This document shows, one piece after another, positions 14,589-28,833 of a stretch of DNA of 64,000 nucleotides; position 1 is the stretch's first letter, and each line of letters opens with the position of its first letter. The position numbers and the translations under genes are program-made. The notes beneath the pieces are model-generated. The model saw nothing but the letters and a program-made list of their open reading frames with translations. It had not been told where the DNA came from and ran no database searches. Where the stretch lies: the NCBI RefSeq assembly GCF_001719615.1, contig NZ_MDVX01000002.1, positions 1 to 64,000 of the forward strand, given 5' to 3'. Origin of the DNA: Neptunicoccus sediminis (GTDB lineage: Bacteria > Pseudomonadota > Alphaproteobacteria > Rhodobacterales > Rhodobacteraceae).

Positions 14589-17447
14589 TTACTCTGCAGC
14601 GACCTGTTTGATCCCCAGCATTTCCGCCAGATAATGCCCAGTGTGGCTGGCTTTCACTTGTGCCACCTCTTCCGGCGTGCCGATTGCTACAATTTCGCCC
14701 CCGCCATCGCCGCCTTCAGGGCCGATATCGATGATATGATCCGCAGTCTTAATCACGTCGAGGTTGTGTTCGATCACCAGCACGGAATTGCCCTGATCGA
14801 CCAGTTCGTGCAGCACTTCCAGCAGTTTACGCACGTCCTCAAAGTGCAGGCCGGTGGTGGGTTCGTCGAGAATATACAGCGTCCGTCCGGTGGACCGTTT
14901 GGACAGTTCTTTTGACAGCTTCACCCGTTGCGCCTCACCACCCGACAGGGTCGTGGCCTGCTGGCCGACCTTGATATAGCCGAGTCCGACCCGCAACAGC
15001 GCAGTCATTTTGTCGCGAATGGCCGGCACTGCCTGAAAGAAGGTTTCCGCATCCTCGACAGTCATATCCAGCACATCGGCAATGCTCTTGCCCTTGAACA
15101 GCACCTCCAGCGTTTCGCGGTTGTAGCGTTTGCCGTTGCAGCTTTCGCAGGTCACATAGACGTCCGGCAGGAAGTGCATCTCGATCTTGATCACCCCGTC
15201 GCCCTGACAAGCCTCACAGCGCCCGCCCTTCACGTTGAAGGAGAACCGCCCCGGTTTGTAGCCTCGCGCTTTGGCTTCGGGCAACCCGGCGAACCATTCG
15301 CGGATCGGTGTAAAAGCACCTGTATATGTCGCAGGGTTGGAGCGCGGCGTGCGCCCGATGGCCCGCTGGTCAATGTCGATCACCTTGTCGAGATATTGCA
15401 ATCCCTTGATCGCCTCGCAGGGGGCCGGCGTCTGTTTCGCACCGTTTAACCGCATGGAGGCGGTTTTGAACAGGGTTTCGATGGTCAGGGTCGATTTACC
15501 GCCACCGGAAACGCCCGTCACGCAGCAAAATGTGCCCAGCGGATAATGCGCAGTGACGTTTTTGAGGTTATTGCCGGTCGCGCCTTCTACCACCAGAGAC
15601 TTGCCATTTCCCTTGCGCCTTTCAGCAGGGATCGGAATACTGCGTTTTCCAGTAAGATATTGACCGGTAATGGATTTTTTGTTCTTCGCAATTTGCGTTG
15701 GCGTGCCCTTGGCGATGATTTCCCCGCCGTGCACACCCGCCCCGGGACCAATGTCCAGAACGAAATCCGCCTCGCGGATGGCTTCTTCGTCATGCTCGAC
15801 GACAATCACCGTATTGCCCTGATCCCGCAGGTTTTTCAGCGTCGTCAGCAAACGGTCATTATCCCGCTGATGCAAACCAATCGACGGTTCATCAAGCACA
15901 TAGAGCACCCCCGTCAGGCCCGAACCGATCTGGCTGGCCAGACGAATCCGCTGGCTTTCCCCACCCGAGAGCGTACCGGAGTTGCGCGACAGGGTCAGGT
16001 AGTTCAACCCAACATTCACCAGAAAGCCCAACCGCTCGCGGATTTCCTTCAGGATTGCGCGGGCGATTTCGTTTTTCTGCGCTGAAAGTTCTGCAGGTAT
16101 ACCGTCGACCCAGTCATGGGCTTCGGCAATAGACATTTCCACCACCTGCCCCACATGCAGCCCGCCGATTTTCACCGCCAGCGCTTCGGGGCGTAGACGG
16201 TATCCGTCACAGACACCGCAATGACGGTTGTTCTGATAGCGTTCAAATTCTTCGCGGATCCAGTTGCTGTCCGTCTCGCGGTAGCGCCGCTCCATATTCG
16301 GGATCACGCCTTCAAAGGCGCGGGACACCTCATAGACGCGGCCACCCTCATCATAGCGGAACTTGATTTCCTCATTACCCGAGCCGTGCAACATCAGTTG
16401 TTGCACATGGGCCGGAAGTTCCCGCCAGGGCAGGTTTTTATCAAATTCGTAATGCCGTGCGATGGCCTCAATCGTCTGGCGGAAATAGGGCGATTTCCCC
16501 TTCGCCCAAGGCGCCAGCGCCCCTTTATACAGGGACAAAGACGGGTCCGGCACCACCAGACGTTCGTCAAAGAACAATTCCACACCCAGACCGTCACACT
16601 CCGGACAGGCGCCAAAGGGTGCGTTGAACGAAAACAGCCGCGGTTCGATTTCGGGGATGGTAAAGCCGCTAACCGGACAGGCAAACTTTTCCGAAAACGT
16701 ATAACGCTCCGGCTCGCCCTCTTTCGGGGCGGTTTCCAGAATGGCAATGCCATCCGCCAGATCAAGTGCCGTGCGCAAACTATCCGCAAGCCGCGTCTCC
16801 AGCCCTTCCTTCACAACGATCCGGTCAACCACCACGTCGATATTGTGGCGGAATTTCTTATCGAGCGTAGGCGGCGTGTCGAGATCGTGGAATTCTCCGT
16901 TCACCTTGACCCGCTGAAAACCGGTTTTCTTTAGTTCAGCAAACTCCTTGCGGTATTCGCCCTTGCGATCCCGCACAATCGGCGCCAGCAGATAGGCGCG
17001 CGTACCTTCCTCCATCAACATCACACGGTCTACCATCTCGGACACTTGCTGTGCCTCGATCGGCAATCCGGTGGCCGGAGAATAAGGCGTGCCAACGCGG
17101 GCGAACAGCAGCCGCATATAGTCGTAAATCTCAGTCACCGTGCCAACAGTAGAACGGGGATTCTTCGAGGTGGTTTTTTGTTCAATGGAAATAGCGGGCG
17201 ACAGACCGGAGATGTGATCCACATCCGGTTTTTGCATCATATCGAGAAACTGCCGCGCGTAAGCCGAGAGCGATTCCACATAACGGCGCTGCCCCTCGGC
17301 GTAGATCGTGTCAAACGCCAGAGAGGATTTCCCCGATCCCGAAAGCCCGGTGATAACCACCAGCTTGTCGCGCGGAATATCCACGTCGATGGATTTGAGA
17401 TTATGCTCGCGCGCGCCGCGGATTTCGATATTTTTGAGTTCAGCCAA
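14589..17447 (-). CDS. uvrA: Excinuclease ABC subunit A
   Basis: This is the DNA-damage recognition ATPase of nucleotide excision repair, 952 residues, full length. There are two ABC modules: Walker [10 protein letters not shown] at about 33-41 and G-V-S-G-G-G-K-S-T in the second half, each with L-S-G-G-E signatures. Zinc-finger cysteines are visible in G-A-C-P-E-C-D-G and in C-E-A-C-Q-G-D-G ... C-E-S-C-N-G. A LexA-type box lies 75 bp upstream, which fits SOS control. Confidence 0.97.
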
Positions 17448-17521: not shown

Positions 17522-17536
17522 GAACATTAAGGGAAC
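17522..17536 (-). promoter_or_regulatory. LexA (SOS) box upstream of uvrA
   Basis: GAAC-ATTAAGG-GAAC is an exact match, on the minus strand, to the alphaproteobacterial LexA site GTTC-N7-GTTC. It is 75-89 bp upstream of the uvrA start codon. uvrA is a known SOS gene in several alphaproteobacteria. Confidence 0.75.
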
Positions 17537-18361: not shown

Positions 18362-18877
18362 ATGGCTGGCAGTTTGAACAAGGTTATGTTGATCGGCAAT
18401 CTGGGCCGTGATCCGGAAGTGCGCAGCTTTCCAAATGGCGGTAAGGTGTGCAACCTGCGCATCGCAACTTCCGAACGCTGGCGCGACAAGAACACCGGCG
18501 AAAACCGCGAGCGTACAGAATGGCATCAGGTTTCCATTTTCAGCGAAGGTCTGATCCGCGTGTGCGAACAATACCTGCGCAAAGGCTCCAAAGTCTTTGT
18601 CGAAGGCCAGTTACAAACCCGTAAATGGCAGGACCAGAGCGGCAACGACCGGTATTCGACCGAGGTGGTTCTGCAAGGCTTTAACGGTACATTGACCATG
18701 CTGGACGGACGCGACGGCGGTGGTGGCGGGTCGCAAGGCGGCGGCTACGATCAGGGCGGCGGCAGCGGCGGCTATGGCGGCGGTTACGATCAGGGTGGCG
18801 GCTATGGCGGCGGCTCTCAGGGTGGCGGTTCCCAAGGGGGCGGCAACTCCGATCTGGACGACGAAATCCCGTTCTGA
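18362..18877 (+). CDS. ssb: Single-stranded DNA-binding protein
   Basis: The 171-residue SSB has an N-terminal OB fold beginning [16 protein letters not shown] and T-E-W-H-Q-V, a long glycine/glutamine-rich linker (G-G-G-Y-D-Q repeats) and the acidic tip D-L-D-D-E-I-P-F that recruits repair and replication partners. AGGGAGAAACGCC gives a good Shine-Dalgarno site. No full LexA box was found in the upstream gap. Confidence 0.97.
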
Positions 18878-25874: not shown

Positions 25875-26321
25875 ATGACAGACGCATCCGAAATGGTAAA
25901 ACTCTACTCCAACCGGATTCTTGCACTGGCGGCGGATATTCCCCATGCCGAACGGCTGAACGCTCCAGAGGCGAGTGATATGAAACGGTCTCCTTTATGT
26001 GGTTCTACCGTAACGGTAGATGTTTGCGTGAAAGACGGCGTGGTGTCCGATTTTGGCCAAGACGTCAAAGCCTGCGCCTTAGGACAGGCATCGGCCAGCG
26101 TTTTAGGCGCGGCGGTTATGGGGCAGTCTTTGAGCACGATCAAAACCGGACGTGACCAACTGGCCGCAATGTTGAAATCCGACGGACCCGTTCCTGATGC
26201 GCCGTTTGATGGTTTGGAAGTGTTGCAACCTGCCAAAGCTTACAAAAACCGTCATGCATCCATTCTTTTGGCGTTTGATGCAACGGTCGCTGCTCTCGAA
26301 AGCTTAAACCAAGCGGCGTAA
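25875..26321 (+). CDS. IscU/NifU-N-like Fe-S scaffold protein lacking the third Cys
   Basis: The 148-residue protein has the IscU/SufU fold. The first cluster Cys is C42 in P-L-C-G-S, where the usual following Asp is Ser, and the second is C67 in K-A-C-A-L-G-Q-A-S-A-S. The third, normally in an R-x-x-C-x-x-L context near the C-terminus, is replaced: R-H-A-S-I-L-L. It may be a carrier or a divergent scaffold rather than a standard one. The gene is divergent from hisI. Confidence 0.82.
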   Translation: MTDASEMVKLYSNRILALAADIPHAERLNAPEASDMKRSPLCGSTVTVDVCVKDGVVSDFGQDVKACALGQASASVLGAAVMGQSLSTIKTGRDQLAAMLKSDGPVPDAPFDGLEVLQPAKAYKNRHASILLAFDATVAALESLNQAA

Positions 26322-26342: not shown

Positions 26343-26377
26343 AAAAAAAAACGCCGCGACCTAAACAGGTGCGGCGT
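26343..26377 (-). terminator. Rho-independent terminator of the small membrane-peptide gene
   Basis: On the minus strand GCCGCACC and GGTCGCGGC fold around TGTTTA and are followed by a run of at least eight T. It lies about 130 bp past the stop of the gene at 26510-26635. Confidence 0.75.
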
Positions 26378-26509
26378 CAAAGGTGTGCGGTGTCGAAAAT
26401 CGGGCACGTCGGAAACGGGGCAATGTTTCAGGGCCGTCTTGGGACGGCGGGCATCACAGGGACGAGGCATCCGGATACCCAAGTGCAGCCAAACGACCGC
26501 GGACAGAGT

Positions 26510-26635
26510 TCAGAGGGTGTAACCGGGCAGGTGCAGAACAACGACCAGCATCACAAAAATGGCAGAAAGCCCGACAACGTCTTCAAGGACGGTGGCGGAA
26601 TTAGCATTCAGTATTCGGATCATTTCGCGGATCAT
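26510..26635 (-). CDS. 41-residue single-pass membrane peptide, likely SOS- and CtrA-controlled
   Basis: The translation is M-I-R-E-M-I-R-I-L-N-A-N-S-A-T-V-L-E-D-V, then V-G-L-S-A-I-F-V-M-L-V-V-V-L-H-L-P-G-Y-T-L. A short cytoplasm-like head carries two Arg, and one hydrophobic segment covers residues 20-36. GAGG seven bases before the ATG is a good ribosome-binding site. The gene has its own promoter region with three LexA boxes and one CtrA box (26666-26734), and its own terminator, downstream of recG on the same strand. Small LexA-controlled membrane peptides in other bacteria, such as Caulobacter SidA, inhibit cell division. A similar role is inferred from regulation and size, not from sequence similarity. 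Confidence 0.7.
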   Translation of the reverse strand: MIREMIRILNANSATVLEDVVGLSAIFVMLVVVLHLPGYTL

Positions 26636-26655
26636 TGTCAGACCTCAGTGGTTAT

Positions 26656-26735
26656 GTTCTCGTCAGTTCCTGTAATGTTCCGCAATTGTTCCTGCATTGC
26701 AAGAACTAAATGAGAACATTTAACTGTTCCTTAAC
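26656..26735 (-). promoter_or_regulatory. Cluster of three LexA boxes and one CtrA box
   Basis: GTTC-CTGTAAT-GTTC (26666-26680) and GTTC-CGCAATT-GTTC (26677-26691) overlap by sharing a GTTC. GAAC-TAAATGA-GAAC (26703-26717) is a third exact GTTC-N7-GTTC site in the opposite sense. A further GTTC at 26656 is one base off spacing. TTAA-CTGTTCC-TTAAC (26720-26735) is a perfect CtrA box. They lie 31 to 99 bp before the start of the 41-residue gene. Three LexA boxes within 52 bp is far above chance. Confidence 0.75.
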
Positions 26736-26745
26736 CTCTGTGGGT

Positions 26746-28833
26746 TTAACCTACTGAAATGTATCGAAAAGATTTATCCTGCTCCATCAGATAAAGGAGA
26801 ACACGCGCCGCTTTCCCCCTTTCGGAGACCAGTTGAGGGTCTTCGGCCAATAACAAACGGGCATCGTCCTGCGCCGTTTTCATCAACTCGGACTGGCGTT
26901 CCAAATCCGCAATCCGGAACCGTGGCAGACCGGATTGGGCAACGCCCAGAACATCTCCGGCGCCGCGGATTTTCAAATCCTCATCCGCGATGCGGAACCC
27001 GTCGTTGGTGTCGCGCATGGTCTTTAACCGCCGCTCGGCCGTCTTTCCAAGCGTGCCATACATCAACAAACAGGTTGAGGCCTCGGACCCACGCCCGACA
27101 CGCCCGCGCAACTGGTGCAATTGCGCCAGACCAAAACTTTCGGCCTGTTCGATGACCATAATACTCGCCGTGGGAACGTTAACCCCGACTTCGATCACCG
27201 TTGTTGCCACCAGAACTTTGGTGCGACCTGACACAAAATCCGCCATGGCCGCATCTTTATCCGCTGGTGGCATTTGGCCGTGAACCATGCCCACGTTTTC
27301 GTCACCGAGGGCAAGTCGCAACAGACGGTAGCGCTCTTCAGTGGCGGCCCAGTCCTTTGTCTCGCTTTCCCCGACAAGCGGACATACCCAATACGCCTGC
27401 CGCCCCTCTGCAATCGCGTTGCGCAGGTGGGAGACCACTTCTTCGAGCCTCTTGTTCGAGACCAGAACCGTTTCGATCGGTTTGCGTCCGGCGGGTTTCT
27501 CATCCAGTACCGAAACATCCATGTCGCCATAATTCGCCAGTTCCAAAGAGCGCGGAATAGGTGTCGCTGTCATCACCAGCACATCCACCGCAGCCCCTTT
27601 CGCACCCAGGTCGAGCCGCTGGCGAACGCCAAACCGGTGCTGTTCATCAATGACGGCAAGCCGAAGATCTTGAAATTGAATGTCTTTTTGAAACACTGCA
27701 TGTGTTCCCACGAGAATCTGGATGTTCCCGTTCTCCAGTGCCCCCAGCTTTTTGCGCCGCTCCGCCCCGGTGTCCCGCCCGGTCAGCAATTCCAAAACAA
27801 CGCCGGCCTCGGCTGCGAGTGGCTGAAGCCCTTCCACATGCTGCCGCGCCAGGATTTCCGTTGGCGCCATCAGAACGCCCTGCCCGCCGGATTCCACCGC
27901 CGCCAGTAGCGCAATCAGCGCAACCAGTGTCTTTCCGGAGCCAACATCCCCTTGCAACAGACGGTTCATTTTCCGCTTGCTCGCCATGTCTTCGGTTATT
28001 TCCGAAAACGCCCGTAACTGCGCATTGGTGGGCGCGTAAGGTAAAGATTTCAATACCTTATTGCGTAGAACGCCGGTGCCTTTCGTCTCTAAACCTTTGG
28101 CACGGCGCTGGGAATTGCGGGCCAGCGCCAGGGTGATTTGATGGGCGAACATTTCGTCATAGGCTAACCTTGCGCGGTGGGGCGCTGTCGCTTGAACATC
28201 GGCCTGAGAGCGGGGTGCATGCGCTGTCTCCACCGCAGCTTTCCACCCCGGCCAATCGAATTTTGCAATGACGGACGGGGCAATCCACTCGGCAAGATCC
28301 GGCAAGAGACGCAAGGCCGAATGGACGGCGCGAAAGACCTGCTTTTGACTGATCCCCGCCGTCAGGGGATACAGCGGTTCATTGGCGGGGATCGTCTCCG
28401 CTGCTTCGGGCGGCAGAATGTAATCGGGATGAACCATCTGGGCGATACTGTCGAACATCTCTACCTTGCCGGAAACCACGCGTTTTTGACCGCTCGGCAG
28501 TTGTTCGCGCAACCAGTCGGAACGCGCGTGGAAAAACACCAGTTGAAAGCTGGTTTTACTATCCTGCACCGTTACCCGATAGGGCCGCCCCTTCACCGCG
28601 TTCGGGGAGTGAATGCCGACGACGACTTCGACCGTCACCACCGACGGCGGCGCAACGTCGAGGATACTCGTGCTGATTTGGCGGTTGATCAGGCTGTGAG
28701 GAAGCAAAAACAGCAGGTCACGGGGGCGGGTAATTTCAATTTTAGCAAAATTTTGCGCAGATTTCGGCCCGATCCCGTCGAGCACGGTCAGATCCGCAAA
28801 AAGCGGAAAGAGAATTTCTGGACGGCGGCTCAT
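26746..28833 (-). CDS. recG: ATP-dependent DNA helicase RecG
   Basis: This 695-residue fork-reversal and branch-migration helicase has an N-terminal wedge domain starting L-D-G-I-G-P-K-S-A. The motor has Walker A G-D-V-G-S-G-K-T, a D-E-Q-H box in V-I-D-E-Q-H-R-F-G-V, the T-A-T-P-I-P-R motif and R-G-R-V-G-R-G. It lies between the small peptide gene and ligA, which it follows with a 9-bp gap, so a ligA-recG operon is likely. Confidence 0.96.
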   Translation of the reverse strand: MSRRPEILFPLFADLTVLDGIGPKSAQNFAKIEITRPRDLLFLLPHSLINRQISTSILDVAPPSVVTVEVVVGIHSPNAVKGRPYRVTVQDSKTSFQLVFFHARSDWLREQLPSGQKRVVSGKVEMFDSIAQMVHPDYILPPEAAETIPANEPLYPLTAGISQKQVFRAVHSALRLLPDLAEWIAPSVIAKFDWPGWKAAVETAHAPRSQADVQATAPHRARLAYDEMFAHQITLALARNSQRRAKGLETKGTGVLRNKVLKSLPYAPTNAQLRAFSEITEDMASKRKMNRLLQGDVGSGKTLVALIALLAAVESGGQGVLMAPTEILARQHVEGLQPLAAEAGVVLELLTGRDTGAERRKKLGALENGNIQILVGTHAVFQKDIQFQDLRLAVIDEQHRFGVRQRLDLGAKGAAVDVLVMTATPIPRSLELANYGDMDVSVLDEKPAGRKPIETVLVSNKRLEEVVSHLRNAIAEGRQAYWVCPLVGESETKDWAATEERYRLLRLALGDENVGMVHGQMPPADKDAAMADFVSGRTKVLVATTVIEVGVNVPTASIMVIEQAESFGLAQLHQLRGRVGRGSEASTCLLMYGTLGKTAERRLKTMRDTNDGFRIADEDLKIRGAGDVLGVAQSGLPRFRIADLERQSELMKTAQDDARLLLAEDPQLVSERGKAARVLLYLMEQDKSFRYISVG

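What the first reader, a model, noticed from the sequence alone, without database searches (positions are those of the whole stretch)
26510..26735. Unlisted 41-residue membrane peptide behind three LexA boxes and one CtrA box
A 41-codon ORF with a good ribosome-binding site, one transmembrane segment and its own terminator has three exact GTTC-N7-GTTC sites within 52 bp upstream, two of them overlapping, plus a perfect TTAA-N7-TTAAC. A rough estimate at about 60% G+C gives one or two such LexA sites per 64 kb by chance, so three in 52 bp is striking. Small LexA-controlled membrane peptides elsewhere (Caulobacter SidA, 29 residues) halt cell division. Having both LexA and CtrA sites suggests a DNA-damage checkpoint peptide tied to the cell cycle.
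Basis: partly seen in the sequence, partly recalled or inferred. Interest (0 to 1): 0.85.

Follow-up and report, generated by a model that had tools for sequence, protein, structure and literature searches.

The report
SOS membrane peptide with structured RNA
Right after the DNA-repair gene recG, this bacterium and its relatives carry a tiny gene that looks switched on by DNA damage and encodes a 40-residue membrane peptide followed by a folded RNA tail, probably to hold back growth or division during repair.

Summary
The 41-codon ORF (26510-26635, minus strand) belongs to a conserved single-pass membrane-peptide family (pN/pS 0.27). It lies after recG in 93 of 101 sampled genomes of its order; the other 8 have a short or diverged peptide after recG behind the same type of promoter. 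An exact GTTC-N7-GTTC box lies upstream in 90 of 93 (controls 0 of 93). A 20-bp form of this operator occurs in 62 of 101 genomes, once each and only here. The CtrA box is not conserved (5 of 93; control 2). New: the stop-to-terminator stretch is a conserved structured RNA with CUGUCCC/CUGCCU motifs mostly unpaired; no Rfam match. No Pfam or NCBIfam model matched the peptide, and a class sample of 385 genomes gave no convincing relative outside this family. Best reading: a LexA-controlled SOS transcript making a checkpoint peptide, probably acting on the divisome as SidA does, plus a probable regulatory RNA. Conservation, operator and RNA fold rest on sequence; induction, membrane insertion, target and RNA function are inferred.

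The parts
26510..26635 (-). 41-codon ORF plus stop: single-pass membrane peptide; D19, G22, L34 and P37 invariant in 30 aligned members
26703..26717 (-). Conserved LexA-type box (GTTCTCATTTAGTTC), the family operator
   Evidence: box in 90 of 93
26677..26691 (+). Additional LexA-type box (GTTCCGCAATTGTTC), not a family feature
26666..26680 (+). Additional LexA-type box (GTTCCTGTAATGTTC) sharing a half-site with the previous one, not a family feature
26636..26745 (-). Promoter region between recG stop and the ORF; family consensus TTTGTTCNCAAATGTTCTCAAAAAGTTCTTTACA, then GAGAACAAAG with GAAC at +38
26720..26735 (+). CtrA-like TTAA-N7-TTAAC; present but not conserved
26343..26509 (-). Structured 3' UTR RNA: closing stem, three hairpins, terminator (z -3.75 for 26343-26512); this copy is diverged and not found by the family model
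26449..26480 (-). Hairpin 1 of the predicted RNA fold
26433..26448 (-). Hairpin 2 (GCCGUC CCAA GACGGC)
26412..26429 (-). Hairpin 3 (GAAAC AUUGCCCC GUUUC), possible counterpart of the UUUUGCCUC hairpin of relatives
26343..26377 (-). Intrinsic terminator of the transcript
   Evidence: counterpart in relatives
26746..28833 (-). recG, upstream neighbour on the same strand (93 of 93)
25875..26321 (+). NifU-N domain protein, convergent neighbour (80 of 93)

Best explanation
A LexA-repressed SOS transcription unit kept at the recG 3' side in this order (Rhodobacterales, inferred from named relatives). Shown from sequence: a conserved operator-promoter, a ~40-aa single-TM peptide under purifying selection, and a conserved structured 3' UTR ending in an intrinsic terminator. 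Inferred: DNA damage cleaves LexA and releases the promoter. The peptide inserts N-in/C-out (positive N-terminus, no K/R in the last 18 residues) and holds an inner-membrane complex inactive, most likely the FtsW/FtsI/FtsN divisome as Caulobacter SidA is thought to do, pausing division during repair. The RNA tail acts in post-transcriptional regulation (pairing or protein binding through its CUGUCCC/CUGCCU motifs), in trans or on its own mRNA.
For: Peptide: (93 of 101, positional counterparts in the other 8; pooled pN/pS 0.27 over 69 within-genus pairs). Operator: 90 of 93; CTTG-N7-CTTG control 0 of 93; 0 of 93 in each of two flanking windows; fixed spacing; 62 of 101 genomes, one copy each, all at this locus. 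LexA context: this genome's lexA has the same motif, starting 59 bp upstream; lexA in 16 of 16 tested. Membrane. RNA. Analogy: PMC4211646, passages.
Against: No induction, LexA-binding or division data were seen. Homology to SidA could not be tested, and a class-wide sample gave no convincing relative outside the family. Single-TM SOS peptides also include membrane toxins. The covariation counts come from an alignment fitted to the model and include a few off-target rows; in some genera the opposite strand covaries as much. The window's own RNA is not detected by the model, only by its fold.
Confidence: 0.5

Rival explanations
1. A TisB/DinQ-type SOS peptide that perturbs the inner membrane (depolarisation, dormancy) rather than binding the divisome; the RNA tail would control its stability or translation.
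For: LexA-type box and a ~40-aa peptide with one hydrophobic helix; DinQ is described as an SOS-regulated toxic single transmembrane peptide (PMC3567139, start of abstract in a listing).
Against: No K/R in the last 18 residues in 93 of 93, unlike the charged helix recalled for TisB; hydrophobic moment not computed. Invariant D, G, L and P in 30 aligned members suggest a specific partner. The structured part is 3', not 5'; an antisense RNA was not searched for in any systematic way.
Confidence: 0.2
2. The RNA is the main product: an SOS-induced sRNA with a peptide-coding 5' part, whose loops pair with target mRNAs.
For: Similar fold in divergent copies; motif copies unpaired 0.75-0.78 against 0.50 for control 6-mers; the best model match lies at this locus in 79 of 101 genomes, 26 candidates scored per genome.
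Against: The ORF is under purifying selection and a peptide is kept where the RNA looks reduced. No target is established; the mraZ lead is weak.
Confidence: 0.15
3. The peptide modulates another membrane complex during SOS (respiratory, transport or proteolytic), unrelated to division.
For: Nothing in the sequence points to FtsW in particular.
Against: The small SOS membrane proteins named in the listings (SidA, YneA, SosA, DinQ) act on division or on the membrane itself.
Confidence: 0.12
4. One reading: joint LexA and CtrA control ties the peptide to the cell cycle.
For: Exact TTAA-N7-TTAAC at 26720-26735.
Against: Not conserved: 5 of 93 at differing positions, control 2 of 93.
Confidence: 0.03

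Closest known systems
SidA of Caulobacter crescentus (SOS-induced division inhibitor)
   Different: No sequence relationship shown; no convincing relative in a class sample outside this family; here a structured RNA tail and a recG position.
DidA of Caulobacter crescentus
   Same: Small membrane protein induced by DNA damage.
   Different: DidA is SOS-independent (DriD-driven) and binds FtsN (PMC4211646, passages); this gene has a LexA-type operator.
TisB and DinQ of Escherichia coli
   Same: SOS-regulated single-TM peptides with RNA-level control (DinQ from a listing; TisB recalled).
   Different: Those have antisense RNA partners (agrA/agrB in the listing; IstR recalled); here a structured RNA lies in the 3' UTR and the C-terminal half has no positive charge.
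UpsM of Rhodobacter sphaeroides; SgrS/SgrT and 3' UTR-derived sRNAs (recalled)
   Same: Structured, terminator-ended RNA linked to a coding unit; UpsM is reported as special to Rhodobacteraceae (PMC5089854, passages).
   Different: Different locus; here behind a LexA-type operator; no Rfam match.

Membership tests
LexA (SOS) regulon member | Alphaproteobacterial LexA motif GTTC-N7-GTTC in the promoter, conserved across relatives | tested here: met
   90 of 93 upstream regions; controls 0 of 93. Motif meaning recalled; the genome's own lexA carries it
LexA (SOS) regulon member | LexA binding and DNA-damage induction | not testable with these tools
   needs EMSA, ChIP or RNA-seq
SidA-type SOS division inhibitor | Tiny single-pass inner-membrane protein | tested here: met
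   prediction only: hydrophobic segment in 93 of 93, long helix
SidA-type SOS division inhibitor | Sequence homology to SidA | not testable with these tools
   SidA sequence not at hand; class sample gave no convincing relative outside the family
SidA-type SOS division inhibitor | Binds FtsW/FtsN and blocks division | not testable with these tools
   experiment needed
CtrA regulon member | Conserved TTAA-N7-TTAA box in the promoter | tested here: not met
   5 of 93 against 2 of 93 control, differing positions
TisB-type type I toxin | Charged amphipathic TM helix (recalled) | tested here: inconclusive
   no K/R in the last 18 residues in 93 of 93; amphipathicity itself not computed
Known Pfam, NCBIfam or PHROG protein family | Significant profile match | tested here: not met
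   Pfam and NCBIfam: 0 for 3 members up to E 10. PHROGs: 4 families, each matched by 1 of 30 members, best E 0.0042
Known Rfam RNA family | Match to a covariance model | tested here: not met
   no match in 20 loci at E up to 0.1; window region only four hits far below gathering score

The most novel reading that the evidence does not exclude
A dual-function SOS RNA: one LexA-controlled transcript encodes a membrane division inhibitor and, through its conserved C-rich motifs, a trans-acting sRNA that silences division or cell-wall mRNAs (for example at the mraZ start of the dcw cluster, where GGGACAG occurs in 12 of 30 genomes against 3 of 554 control windows), so that DNA damage stops division at protein and RNA level together across this order.
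Probability: 0.15. Interest if true: 0.9.

Novelty: new variant of a known kind. Interest (0 to 1): 0.72.

Why it matters
Rhodobacterales are an abundant marine order (recalled), and in the papers seen here I found no account of how they pause division after DNA damage. This locus is a single, widespread candidate, short enough to be missed by annotation. If the RNA tail works in trans, it would join an SOS effector peptide and a riboregulator in one transcript. The operator, present once per genome where its exact form occurs, makes induction and deletion tests simple in laboratory roseobacters.

Tried and rejected
CtrA co-control: rejected on conservation. Absence in 8 of 101 order genomes (genera g24, g310): not a true absence. 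Seven have the box and a short or diverged peptide directly after recG; the eighth (L262) has them with the box 963 bp after recG. The 48 of 394 family genomes without a profile match were not examined apart from those also in the order sample. Loss of lexA as the reason: rejected, lexA in 16 of 16 tested, among them all 8. Mobile origin: one member gave no tblastn match in phages or plasmids. Known protein families; PDB one meaningless match at E 8.8. Known RNA: none. Opposite strand as the real RNA: weaker fold (mean z -1.44 against -2.31; window -1.86 against -3.75), and in the window the T-run follows the hairpin only on the peptide strand. But in several genera RNAalifold gave as many covarying pairs on the opposite strand (g294 10 and 10, g266 12 and 13, g278 7 and 11, g56 6 and 6, g235 10 and 10; against that g378 8 and 1, g210 5 and 2), so covariation alone does not fix the strand. 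A MAFFT alignment of 27 UTRs gave only the terminator as consensus; within-genus alignments were needed. A body-only alignment misaligned the closing stem and was not used.

mraZ/dcw as RNA target: a post-hoc lead. GGGACAG in 14 of 30 leaders against 2 reversed and 1 reverse complement; 12 of 30 in the last 60 nt against 3 of 554 windows before mechanically listed ORFs of 200 aa or more. Duplex energies only mildly better than 127 SD-filtered control windows: median fraction of controls as strong 0.11; 7 of 29 at 0.05 or below, 12 of 29 at 0.1 or below (one of the 30, L276, dropped for want of an extracted UTR). Clear misses: L272, L285, L268, L295. The window's own genome has only GGACAG. Not claimed.

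Literature: passages seen of PMC6473078 ('recG' counted 0 times in its text), PMC4211646, PMC4414408 (recG there is only a cloning fragment) and PMC5089854. All else was seen only as search listings (two searches returned no paper). That I found no description of this gene or RNA rests on those ten searches of an open-access library; the original SidA paper is not held.

Full report
OBSERVATION. The ORF is 26510-26635 (-). Three exact GTTC-N7-GTTC sites span 26666-26717; the window has five in all against 2.24 expected. In the whole genome the motif is found 141 times against 98 for the reversed control, so single sites mean little; clustering and conservation carry the weight.

THE PEPTIDE. 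tblastn found it in 243 of 394 family genomes at E up to 0.1 (two of the listed alignments run over a stop), and a 30-row profile in 346 of 394 at E up to 0.01, 345 of 393 genera. In the order sample it is in 93 of 101 genomes, 53 of 54 genera; all 101 belong to the window's own family. I fetched all 93 loci (and the window). In each, a script that favours ATG and a length near 40 picked an ATG-started ORF of 36-43 aa. RecG precedes it on the same strand in 93 of 93, and a NifU-N protein converges on it in 80 of 93, within the flanks held. Pooled pN/pS over 69 within-genus pairs of equal length is 0.27 (the pairs share species and are not independent). The eight genomes without a match all have lexA. 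Seven have the box and a short or diverged peptide (31-46 aa) directly after recG; in the eighth the box is 963 bp on. Their kinship rests on place, promoter and a D..G..LP pattern, not on the profile. In a class sample of 385, the five genomes of this family matched clearly; two others, at 0.002 and 0.008, lie inside frames of 547 and 330 aa. No Pfam or NCBIfam model matches three members. PHROGs gave four families, each matched by one of 30 members, best E 0.0042. Phages and plasmids gave nothing for one member.

THE OPERATOR. An exact box lies within 200 bp upstream in 90 of 93; the scrambled motif in 0 of 93; equal windows inside recG and downstream in 0 of 93 each. Aligned on the box (90 sequences), the consensus is TTTGTTCNCAAATGTTCTCAAAAAGTTCTTTACA, then GAGAACAAAG: a further GTTC at -10 in 81 of 90 and GAAC at +38 in 75 of 90. 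The 20-bp form GTTCTNANAAAGTTCTTNAC occurs in 62 of 101 order genomes, exactly once each; the reversed control has none in the rows shown. Of these, 58 lie upstream of the 93 peptides and four in the short-form loci after recG, so all are at this locus. In the class sample it occurs in 2 of 385, both this family. In the window the conserved box is 26703-26717. The overlapping pair lies across the place of the conserved +38 GAAC (here at +37) and is not a family feature; 76 of 93 have a single box. That this motif is LexA's in alphaproteobacteria is recalled. In this genome it also precedes lexA (box start 59 bp before), a methyladenine glycosylase gene (70 bp) and uvrA (about 75 bp). The CtrA box is in 5 of 93 at differing positions, control 2.

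THE RNA. Within 250 nt after the stop, CTGCCTG occurs in 76 of 93 and CTGTCCC in 67 of 93; the commonest 7-mer in one base-shuffled set reached 13. A script found the terminator in 86 of 93. Seventeen chosen copies from nine genera, folded one by one, gave broadly one architecture: single-stranded CUGCC, a closing stem, a hairpin or bulge with CUGUCCC, a mini-hairpin with CUGCCU, a hairpin with UGCCU, and the terminator; details vary. Without the terminator, 46 representatives average z -2.31 (opposite strand -1.44). An unfitted alignment of seven species of one genus gave 39 pairs, 10 with both sides changed. A model from those seven matched 83 of 93 loci on the peptide strand after the stop at E up to 0.01, one match beginning 19 nt before it. 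Many weak matches are terminator-driven: 54 are near full length and 53 reach 40 bits, seven of them the training set. On the fitted alignment of 87 rows (four on the wrong strand) 90% of cells pair, covariation 0.283 against 0.092 shuffled and at most 0.05 slid; fitting favours this. In whole genomes, with 26 candidates scored per genome, 81 of 101 match and in 79 the best match is this locus; G000 and G254 are the exceptions, and 20 have no match. The window's copy is not found by the model, but folds as closing stem, three hairpins and terminator, z -3.75. Motif copies are unpaired with probability 0.75 (78 CTGTCCC) and 0.78 (146 CTGCCT) against 0.50 for 558 control 6-mers. In several genera the opposite strand covaries as much. 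No Rfam family fits.

MECHANISM. The peptide has one hydrophobic segment in 93 of 93, a mean net charge of +1.3 in the first 14 residues and no K/R in the last 18. AlphaFold2 gives a short helix and a long one. With a LexA-type operator this is the physical type of SidA, which interacts with FtsW and FtsN and, in its authors' model, keeps the FtsW/I/N complex inactive (PMC4211646, passages). I commit to a divisome-directed checkpoint peptide at about even odds; a membrane-perturbing peptide is the main rival. For the RNA I tested one idea, the mraZ start of the division cluster, whose leader RNA UpsM is reported as special to Rhodobacteraceae (PMC5089854, passages). GGGACAG lies in 12 of 30 mraZ start regions against 3 of 554 control windows, but pairing energies are only mildly better than controls. 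This is a lead, not a result.

VERDICT.

Noticed in passing
window 17522-17536 (-), uvrA 14589-17447 (-), ssb 18362-18877 (+): An exact GTTC-N7-GTTC box lies about 75 bp upstream of the listed uvrA start, with ssb further on in the other direction: an ordinary SOS arrangement.
   Followed up: partly
L158 (G000:C60:15500-20500) at 2209-2245: Another triple array of GTTC-N7-GTTC boxes at exact 11-bp steps in the same genome; the gene it controls was not identified.
   Followed up: no
L174 (G000:C55:71400-75400) at 1984 and 2043-2732: lexA of this genome, about 9 kb beyond the window's end, with its own box starting 59 bp upstream.
   Followed up: partly
L266-L295, mraZ leaders: The mraZ 5' leader (UpsM region) is strongly conserved over 30 genomes, and GGGACAG lies in or next to the mraZ start region in 12 of them.
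   Followed up: partly
L256-L263, genera g24 and g310: Shortened 31-aa or diverged versions of the peptide, some with a smaller 3' fold; in L262 the box is displaced 963 bp from recG.
   Followed up: partly
window 26703-26717 promoter, family-wide: A conserved inverted GAAC at +38 and a GGCAACA element at about +47 to +53 of the promoter remain unexplained (extra LexA half-site, -10 region or another factor).
   Followed up: no
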